From: Natronobeatus ordinarius
GTDB lineage: Archaea > Halobacteriota > Halobacteria > Halobacteriales > Natrialbaceae
NCBI RefSeq assembly: GCF_024362485.1
Contig: NZ_CP101456.1
Coordinates: 2,666,001-2,730,000, forward strand
Length of the DNA stretch: 64,000 nt
Direction of reading: 5' to 3'
Shown here: piece after piece, positions 4,696-6,069 of the stretch
Layout: every line of letters starts with the position of its first letter
Numbering within the stretch: position 1 is the first letter of the stretch
Position numbers and translations under genes: made by a program
Notes under the pieces: generated by a model
The model's input: only the letters and a program-made list of their open reading frames with translations
Databases searched by the model: none
Told to the model about the DNA's origin: nothing

Positions 4696-4980
4696 TCAGT
4701 CGTCGTCAGCTGTATACGCGCCGCCGCGCCGTTTGATTCGAGCAACGACCATTCGGTACTCGTCTCGATGGAAAGTGACCGCAAGACGGAATTCACCAAT
4801 ACGCACCTTACGGCGTGGACTGTTCTGGAGCGGTTCACCGTAGTCTGGTGGGTCGCGCCACGGAGAATTGACGATTTCGTCAAGTTTGTCGATAATTCGT
4901 TGCTGCGCGTTCGGAGTGAGCGCATCGAGGTCGTCCTGCGCTTTCGTTGCGAGTTCCCACGTCTACCCGTTGTCACTCAT
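4696..4980 (-). pseudogene. RelE/ParE-family toxin interrupted by an amber codon at codon 6
   Basis: Reading the minus strand from ATG 4980 gives M-S-D-N-G-TAG-T-W-E-L-A-T-K-A-Q-D-D-L and then an uninterrupted frame to TGA at 4696-4698, 94 codons in all. The reading after the stop has the features of a haloarchaeal RelE/ParE toxin: SPWRDPPDYGEPLQNSP, then KVRIGEFRLAVTF, then VVARIKRRGGAYTADDD. The ATG overlaps the antitoxin stop (ATGAGTGA), the usual antitoxin-toxin overlap. TAG at 4963-4965 would stop translation after five residues, and I see no in-frame ATG, GTG or TTG shortly after it. The toxin is therefore probably inactive unless the stop is read through or is a sequencing error. Confidence 0.85.
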
Positions 4981-5257
4981 TCGTGTCGTCGGTGCCAAAT
5001 CGTTCGCGTGCTTCCTCGGCGCTCATCGTCCGTTGTTCACGGACATCCTCCTCCGCTTGGAGAAGTGCGACGAGTTCGTCACGGTCGAACGTGGGATGTT
5101 CGACGGCGTCACGCAAGGTATACCGGATGAATTCGCTCCGACTGTTGAATCCCCGTCCTTGCCACGTGTCTTCGATTTCGTCGAGAAACGACCGTGTGAG
5201 TTTGAAGTTCACCGTGAGGATCTCGTCGTCGCCATTGTTCGTGGTCGCTTCAGACAT
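4973..5257 (-). CDS. Ribbon-helix-helix antitoxin
   Basis: A 94-residue acidic protein with an N-terminal ribbon-helix-helix signature: ILTVNFKLTRSFLDEIEDTW (beta strand then helix A), followed by GFNSRSEFIRYTLRDAV (turn and helix B). The acidic C-terminal tail (VREQRTMSAEEARERF) would be the toxin-binding part. RHH antitoxins bind operators as dimers and repress their own operon; a 19-bp near-perfect palindrome sits directly before the ATG (5258-5276). The gene overlaps the toxin reading frame at 4973-4980. The antitoxin frame is intact while the toxin frame carries an amber codon. Confidence 0.85.
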   Translation of the reverse strand: MSEATTNNGDDEILTVNFKLTRSFLDEIEDTWQGRGFNSRSEFIRYTLRDAVEHPTFDRDELVALLQAEEDVREQRTMSAEEARERFGTDDTNE

Positions 5258-5276
5258 ACGCTAGTATTACCAGCGT
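5258..5276. promoter_or_regulatory. Probable operator of the RHH antitoxin operon
   Basis: The 19-bp sequence ACGCTAGTATTACCAGCGT is a near-perfect palindrome: arms ACGCT/AGCGT and inner GTA/TAC match, with mismatches only at three positions including the centre. It ends one base before the antitoxin ATG (5257, minus strand), the usual place for autoregulation by RHH antitoxins. The role is inferred from symmetry and position. Confidence 0.6.
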
Positions 5277-5448
5277 GTTACTGTAGGTGTTTCGGCGCTC
5301 AAACGTTGACGCCATCGAGAGAAGAGACAACAGTGCACAATGGTAGTGTTGCTTGTTACCGGTTCTCGCGCTGATGAACCTTGTTCAGGTAGATGAAATC
5401 CATGGTACGAATCACAGAAAATATCTCTCGTGGGTAATAGTGGGCAAC

Positions 5449-5479: not shown

Positions 5480-5719
5480 ATGACGAAAGTAGATGCTCGG
5501 GACCTACGAACTAACGAAACCGATGACCGAGGTCGAATCTATCTCGGAACGGAGTACGCGAACAAGCGTGTGACCGTCGCCGTTGTTGAGGTAGAATCTG
5601 ACCATCCCAACGAAGATGAACTGGCTGCTGCGTACCGTGAGGCATCTGAGAGTGCGGAAGAGTTTGCAGAAGAGTGGGACGGAGCATCGGACGAGGCGTG
5701 GGACGGGCTGGATAAATGA
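5480..5719 (+). CDS. Antitoxin of a MazF-type pair (AbrB-like N-terminus)
   Basis: A 79-residue acidic protein. The N-terminal half (TDDRGRIYLGTEYANKRVTVAVVEVE) resembles the beta-rich swapped-hairpin segment of haloarchaeal AbrB/SpoVT-like antitoxins; the C-terminal half is a Glu/Asp-rich helix ending AWDGLDK, suited to binding a basic toxin. It overlaps the next gene by 4 nt (ATGA), so the two are co-translated. A TATA-like box at 5449-5456 suggests a leaderless start at 5480. Base composition is lower in GC than the flanking core genes. Confidence 0.8.
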   Translation: MTKVDARDLRTNETDDRGRIYLGTEYANKRVTVAVVEVESDHPNEDELAAAYREASESAEEFAEEWDGASDEAWDGLDK

Positions 5720-6069
5720 GTGAGGACGTGGAAATTCGTCGCGGCGACGTTGTTATCGTTCGGCTTGATCCAGCGGAAGGGCACGAGATGAAGAAAACTC
5801 GCCCTGCGGTAGTCGTCCAGAACGATGTTGGGAATAACAATGCTAGTACGACTATCGTTGCACCTGCGACGGGGACATATCGGGGCTATCCGTTCGAGGT
5901 TCTCGTTGAAGCAGCGGAGTCGCCGTTCGAGAAAGATTCCTCGATTCGCCTCGATCAAATTCGTGTCGTTTCCATCGAAAAACGGATTCACTCGGTGCTT
6001 GGAAGCCTCGACGGGGAGACGATGGAGGCGGTGGACGGGGCGTTGAAACTGAGTCTCGGACTGGACTGA
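5716..6069 (+). CDS. MazF/PemK-family endoribonuclease toxin
   Basis: A 117-residue protein with the full MazF/PemK pattern: RRGDVVIVRLDPAEGHEMKKTRPAVVVQ (strand 1, loop and strand 2), TTIVAPATGTYRGYPFEVLVE, SSIRLDQIRVVSIEKRI and the C-terminal helix LDGETMEAVDGALKLSLGL. Family members cleave RNA; the conserved RPAVVV and DQIR blocks are present, so this toxin looks intact. The start overlaps the antitoxin stop by 4 nt. It probably arrived with the rest of the low-GC islet. Target specificity cannot be inferred. Confidence 0.88.
   Translation: MSEDVEIRRGDVVIVRLDPAEGHEMKKTRPAVVVQNDVGNNNASTTIVAPATGTYRGYPFEVLVEAAESPFEKDSSIRLDQIRVVSIEKRIHSVLGSLDGETMEAVDGALKLSLGLD

What the first reader, a model, noticed from the sequence alone, without database searches (positions are those of the whole stretch)
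4696..4980. RelE-type toxin killed by an amber codon beside an intact antitoxin
The minus-strand frame from ATG 4980 reads MSDNG, TAG, TWELATKAQDDL and onward with full RelE/ParE character, while the overlapping antitoxin frame is clean. A single change in codon 6 (likely TGG to TAG, since Trp often stands there in homologues I recall) would explain it. The cell would keep an addiction-type antitoxin with no poison, a snapshot of toxin-antitoxin decay or anti-addiction.
Basis: partly seen in the sequence, partly recalled or inferred. Interest (0 to 1): 0.72.

Follow-up and report, generated by a model that had tools for sequence, protein, structure and literature searches.

The report
Haloarchaeal RelE toxin lost to nonsense
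A salt-loving archaeon carries a toxin-antitoxin gene pair whose toxin gene stops at codon 6 while its antitoxin is intact; this is ordinary toxin loss, but the same toxin has been switched off independently many times across haloarchaea, most often by a stop at one of two neighbouring tryptophan codons.

Summary
On the minus strand a RelE-superfamily toxin frame starts at ATG 4980, overlaps the end of an intact ribbon-helix-helix antitoxin gene (4973-5257) by 8 bases, and is cut by TAG at codon 6 (4963-4965). All 84 full-length open homologues found have TGG (Trp) there, so TGG to TAG is well supported. The genome has no second copy of the toxin, no pyrrolysine synthetase above cut-off and no recognised suppressor tRNA, and TAG is an ordinary stop, so the toxin is most likely silent. 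Frame and antitoxin otherwise look constrained (post-stop dN/dS about 0.07; operator conserved), so the loss is probably recent. It is not unique. Among 129 distinct loci, five lineages carry a stop at this same codon (three TAG, two TGA), five more at Trp8, and roughly 20 carry frameshifts or truncations. Toxin broken with antitoxin complete occurs 24 times, the reverse at most twice. Stops at codons 6 and 8 exceed mutational opportunity (10 of 14 against 34% expected, P about 0.005). This is recurrent, asymmetric decay of a type II module, a known process. Anti-addiction is possible but untested. A sequencing error at this one base cannot be excluded from the assembly alone.

The parts
4973..5257 (-). 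intact ribbon-helix-helix (CopG/RHH-type) antitoxin, 94 aa
   Evidence: weak RHH_1 15.4 bits, below the Pfam cut-off, and NikR/ParD-type RHH hits below their cut-offs; 92-95% identical to antitoxins of the closest intact pairs; pN/pS 0.023/0.29 against L001
4696..4980 (-). RelE-superfamily toxin frame (94 codons) interrupted at codon 6
   Evidence: fold prediction of an intact homologue matches RelE structures
4963..4965 (-). TAG replacing the invariant Trp6 TGG codon
4973..4980 (-). 8-base overlap ATGAGTGA coupling antitoxin stop and toxin start, kept in nearly all homologues
   Evidence: stop end 8 bases into the toxin in nearly all loci
5258..5298 (-). conserved upstream element cgaaacacctacagtaacacgcNNgtaatac just before the antitoxin ATG (probable promoter/operator), retained in the window
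   Evidence: compared by eye across ten Natrialbaceae loci

Best explanation
This is a type II RHH-antitoxin / RelE-toxin operon of haloarchaea whose toxin was silenced, probably recently, by a G-to-A change turning the invariant Trp6 TGG into TAG. Shown: the stop, the conserved Trp, the intact antitoxin and upstream element, single copy, no PylS above cut-off and no suppressor tRNA recognised, and repeated toxin loss in relatives. Inferred: the ribosome ends antitoxin synthesis, re-initiates at the overlapping ATG, makes a five-residue peptide and terminates, so no toxin is made; the antitoxin remains expressed (probably as an autorepressor) and is now free to be lost or to serve against related toxins. 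Addiction logic gives the asymmetry: toxin loss is tolerated at once, antitoxin loss only after the toxin is dead.
For: TGG in all 84 open homologues. Stops at the same codon in L030, L031, L035 and L118 and at codon 8 in L038, L064, L139, L141 and L217, on scattered tips of a tree with intact relatives. Toxin lesion with complete antitoxin 24 loci, toxin open with antitoxin broken at most 2 (L012, where a deletion removes the promoter too, and L138, degenerate in both). In-frame antitoxin stops (L141, L154) occur only where the toxin is already dead. Single toxin and antitoxin copy in the genome. No PylS hit over cut-off and no CTA, TCA or TTA anticodon among the tRNAs recognised. 9 of 40 plausible window genes end in TAG. 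Constraint after the stop fits a recent event.
Against: Strong constraint after the stop is also what a still-translated toxin would show. Base-level sequencing error at 4964 cannot be excluded without reads. Clustering of nonsense at codons 6 and 8 is not explained by opportunity alone.
Confidence: 0.82

Rival explanations
1. The retained antitoxin is selected as an anti-addiction or immunity factor against homologous toxins on incoming plasmids; toxin silencing is the adaptive step.
For: Antitoxin dN/dS is low and the upstream element is kept. Highly similar modules occur on haloarchaeal plasmids: Natrononativus amylolyticus (96.8%, itself with a Trp8 stop) and Natronorubrum bangense (91.5%). 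Many relatives keep the antitoxin beside a dead toxin. Reviews describe the anti-addiction model, shown for the chromosomal ccd system of Erwinia chrysanthemi (PMC2654758).
Against: Low dN/dS across these distances may mostly reflect time before the stop, because the toxin frame shows it too. No partner plasmid known in this genome and no functional test.
Confidence: 0.25
2. The stop is leaky (readthrough, or re-initiation just downstream) and leaves a low, tolerable toxin level, so the allele is attenuated rather than dead.
For: Five of five Trp6 alleles have no second lesion and N/S of 0.40, not above intact copies at 0.50. In L035 the stop is followed directly by ATG (TGAATG), a plausible restart at codon 7. 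Early stops are over-represented.
Against: Codon 7 is ACG in the window and no ATG/GTG/TTG follows in frame until codon 59. No suppressor tRNA recognised and no PylS over cut-off. Both TAG and TGA occur, arguing against a dedicated recoding signal. Frameshifted copies also look young (N/S 0.56-0.63), so constraint is not special to Trp6 alleles.
Confidence: 0.07
3. Sequencing or assembly error at one base.
For: A single-base difference seen in one assembly; reads not available.
Against: The same codon carries a stop in four other unrelated assemblies, and the in-frame stops counted are of the G:C to A:T kind. The assembly is 4.2 Mb in 2 contigs, 99% complete.
Confidence: 0.06

Closest known systems
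Decay of chromosomal ccdO157 and other E. coli type II modules (Mine et al. 2009, cited in PMC7167474 and PMC2654758)
   Same: Chromosomal TA modules degenerate, with nonsense mutations and deletions; inactive toxin mutants explained by time and drift
   Different: Here a RelE/RHH pair in haloarchaea, with recurrent stops at the same two Trp codons
Orphan antitoxins in Klebsiella and E. coli (PMC7192599, PMC10790755)
   Same: Antitoxins persisting without a functional toxin are abundant
   Different: Those surveys count unpaired antitoxins; here the dead toxin frame is still readable beside the antitoxin
Archaeal RelBE of Pyrococcus horikoshii (1wmi) and Thermus RelE (2khe)
   Same: Same fold as the intact homologue model (TM about 0.7-0.8); 2khe also found by sequence profile (E 4.5e-5)
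   Different: Here the antitoxin is apparently of ribbon-helix-helix type and the window's toxin carries a stop

Membership tests
RelE/ParE toxin superfamily | sequence profile match | tested here: met
   PF05016 28 bits, gathering 23
RelE/ParE toxin superfamily | beta-alpha-alpha-beta-beta-beta fold | tested here: met
   model of intact homologue L001 (pLDDT 72, pTM 0.55, modest): E7-10 H12-20 H23-38 E56-61 E64-71 E76-84; best PDB hits are RelE toxins 9g12, 2khe, 3g5o, 1wmi
RelE (ribosome-dependent mRNase) rather than ParE (gyrase) | basic catalytic set and C-terminal Tyr; RNase activity | tested here: inconclusive
   K58, R60, R65, R81, K83-R85 and Y89 invariant in the alignment; equivalence to E. 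coli RelE residues is recalled, activity not testable; RelE structures rank above ParE
Type II TA module | antitoxin upstream, overlapping two-gene operon | tested here: met
   8-base overlap, conserved in nearly all loci
Type II TA module | functional toxin neutralised by antitoxin | tested here: not met
   toxin frame interrupted at codon 6 with no downstream start in frame before codon 59; the window locus is a decayed member
RHH antitoxin | N-terminal ribbon-helix-helix | tested here: inconclusive
   below-threshold hits to RHH_1 and NikR N-terminus; plasmid homologues annotated ribbon-helix-helix
Anti-addiction module | antitoxin neutralises a plasmid-borne homologue | not testable with these tools
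   very similar modules exist on plasmids, activity unknown
Recoded (pyrrolysine) gene | PylS and tRNA-CUA present | tested here: not met
   PylS below cut-off; no CTA anticodon among the tRNAs recognised, although an intron-bearing tRNA could be missed

The most novel reading that the evidence does not exclude
Nonsense at Trp6 or Trp8 of this haloarchaeal RelE is a favoured, possibly reversible off or low state: the stop silences or attenuates the toxin with a five- to seven-residue peptide and preserves the rest of the frame, so lineages can move between armed and disarmed modules while the antitoxin stays under selection.
Probability: 0.08. Interest if true: 0.6.

Novelty: new member of a known kind. 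Interest (0 to 1): 0.36.

Why it matters
Toxin decay beside a kept antitoxin is known from bacteria. A family in which roughly a quarter of the loci found are broken, with about ten apparently independent nonsense losses and almost no antitoxin-only losses, is a natural experiment on addiction in archaea and offers many ready-made pairs for testing anti-addiction.

Tried and rejected
Viral contigs gave no relative and phages one distant one (Harhisp1, 42%), so virus-borne origin was not pursued. Same-genus strain variation could not be tested: the genus holds one genome. An alternative start downstream of the stop was rejected (no ATG/GTG/TTG before codon 59). A shared inherited Trp6 stop was considered and rejected on the tree: L118 pairs with intact L020 at 96% support, and L031 (TAG) and L035 (TGA) differ in codon and lie among intact copies on weakly supported nodes. 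Two protein alignments failed because the chosen frames contained stops. A paper search for one phrase combination found nothing, and the original ccdO157 paper is not held.

Full report
Observation. The minus-strand frame starting at ATG 4980 reads MSDNG, TAG (4965-4963), then 88 further codons to TGA 4698-4696. The antitoxin frame 5257-4973 is uninterrupted and overlaps the toxin start by 8 bases, ATGAGTGA. The post-stop peptide passes the Pfam ParE_toxin threshold and has relatives in 57 haloarchaeal loci. The genome carries one copy each of toxin and antitoxin.

What codon 6 should be. In all 84 full-length, in-register open homologues codon 6 is TGG; Trp6 and Trp8 are both invariant in the alignment. 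Codon 6 lies just before, and codon 8 within, the first beta strand of the modelled fold (residues 7-10). The model of an intact homologue (modest confidence, pLDDT 72) finds RelE toxins as best structural matches, including archaeal RelE 1wmi.

Is the toxin made anyway? There is no ATG, GTG or TTG in frame before codon 59. PylS gives only a sub-threshold hit of the kind that rings in 13 of 14 control genomes. Of 46 tRNA matches, 45 were recognised by ARAGORN and none has a CTA, TCA or TTA anticodon; the remaining one contains no CTA on reading. An intron-bearing suppressor could be missed, but TAG ends 9 of 40 plausible genes in the window. Silence is the most likely state (inference).

It is not alone. 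A survey of 391 genomes of the class and of four families, with sequences fetched, gave 129 distinct loci. In-frame stops at codon 6 are found in the window (TAG), L030 Halorarius litoreus (TGA), L031 Halorubrum rubrum (TAG), L035 Natronomonas MAG (TGA) and L118 (TAG). Stops at codon 8, TGA in every case where the codon was printed, are found in L038, L064, L139, L141 and L217. Other in-frame stops are at codon 41 (second lesion of L139), 42 and 75 (L208), 75 (L041) and 89 (L136, which may be a truncation). About 20 loci carry frameshifts or truncations spread along the gene. On a maximum-likelihood tree the stop-bearing alleles are scattered tips with intact relatives; many nodes have low support, but the spread across families and the mixture of TAG and TGA argue for independent events.

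Clustering. Under G:C to A:T mutation an average intact gene has 11.8 one-step routes to a stop, of which codons 6 and 8 hold 34%. Observed: 10 of 14 (L136 left out), one-sided binomial P 0.005; 9 of 13, allowing one non-independent event, gives 0.010. Part of the recurrence is simply that TGG has two routes to a stop; the remaining excess at the N-terminus is moderate, was noticed after the fact, and is unexplained. Early stops leave no folded fragment, which might matter if longer fragments titrate antitoxin (speculation).

Age. Window against L001 after codon 8: dS 0.28, dN 0.021, ratio 0.07. Changes unique to the window in three-way comparison are 5-9 synonymous and 2-4 non-synonymous; against its nearest intact relative L001 every non-synonymous difference lies in codons 4 to 38. 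Nearest-intact N/S is 0.40 for codon-6 alleles, 0.71 for codon-8 alleles, 0.63 for frameshift and other late lesions, 0.50 for intact copies. None of the classes looks long neutral, so lesions are young as a rule. The test does not separate recent death from continued translation.

Asymmetry. By automatic calling plus reading of the odd cases, 24 loci have a broken toxin with a complete antitoxin (L030, L031, L038, L041, L043, L044, L045, L049, L052, L056, window, L064, L118, L119, L136, L139, L142, L145, L147, L152, L153, L155, L217, L227). The reverse occurs at most twice: L012, where a deletion also removes the promoter, and L138, where both genes are degenerate. In-frame antitoxin stops (L141, L154) are seen only beside dead toxins. 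A sign test on 24 against 2 gives about 1e-5 (hand calculation; relatedness ignored). This is what addiction predicts: the toxin must die first. The window keeps the conserved upstream element found before the antitoxin in other Natrialbaceae, so the antitoxin is probably still expressed (inference).

Comparison with what is known. Decay of chromosomal TA modules by nonsense mutation and deletion (PMC7167474; PMC2654758) and abundant orphan antitoxins (PMC7192599; PMC10790755) are established in bacteria. The window locus is a new archaeal case of a known kind. RelE with an RHH antitoxin has been listed in Haloferax volcanii (PMC5566976). Anti-addiction is a live possibility because closely similar modules sit on plasmids, but nothing here tests it.

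Verdict.

Noticed in passing
window 5480-6069 (+): An intact MazEF-type module (MazF: PemK_toxin, 104 bits) lies divergently, about 222 bases from the antitoxin start. The same divergent pairing with nearly the same gap occurs in L001, L008 and L009 (shorter in L012, which has a deletion), and mazEF lies within 3 kb in several other Natrialbaceae loci, as if the two modules travel together.
   Followed up: partly
L035 codons 6-7: The Trp6 TGA is followed directly by ATG (GGGTGAATGTGGGAACTC), so an almost complete toxin could be re-initiated there, unlike in the window.
   Followed up: no
L012 upstream of toxin: A deletion has removed the antitoxin promoter and first 18 codons, leaving an open toxin frame next to mazE.
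   Followed up: partly
toxin codons 70-77 in L043, L045, L049, L056, L143, L147: Frameshifts recur around codons 70-77 of the toxin, a possible indel hot spot.
   Followed up: no
NZ_CP101460.1 99324-99605: The plasmid copy in Natrononativus amylolyticus with the Trp8 stop has only the antitoxin listed in the gene table used here.
   Followed up: no
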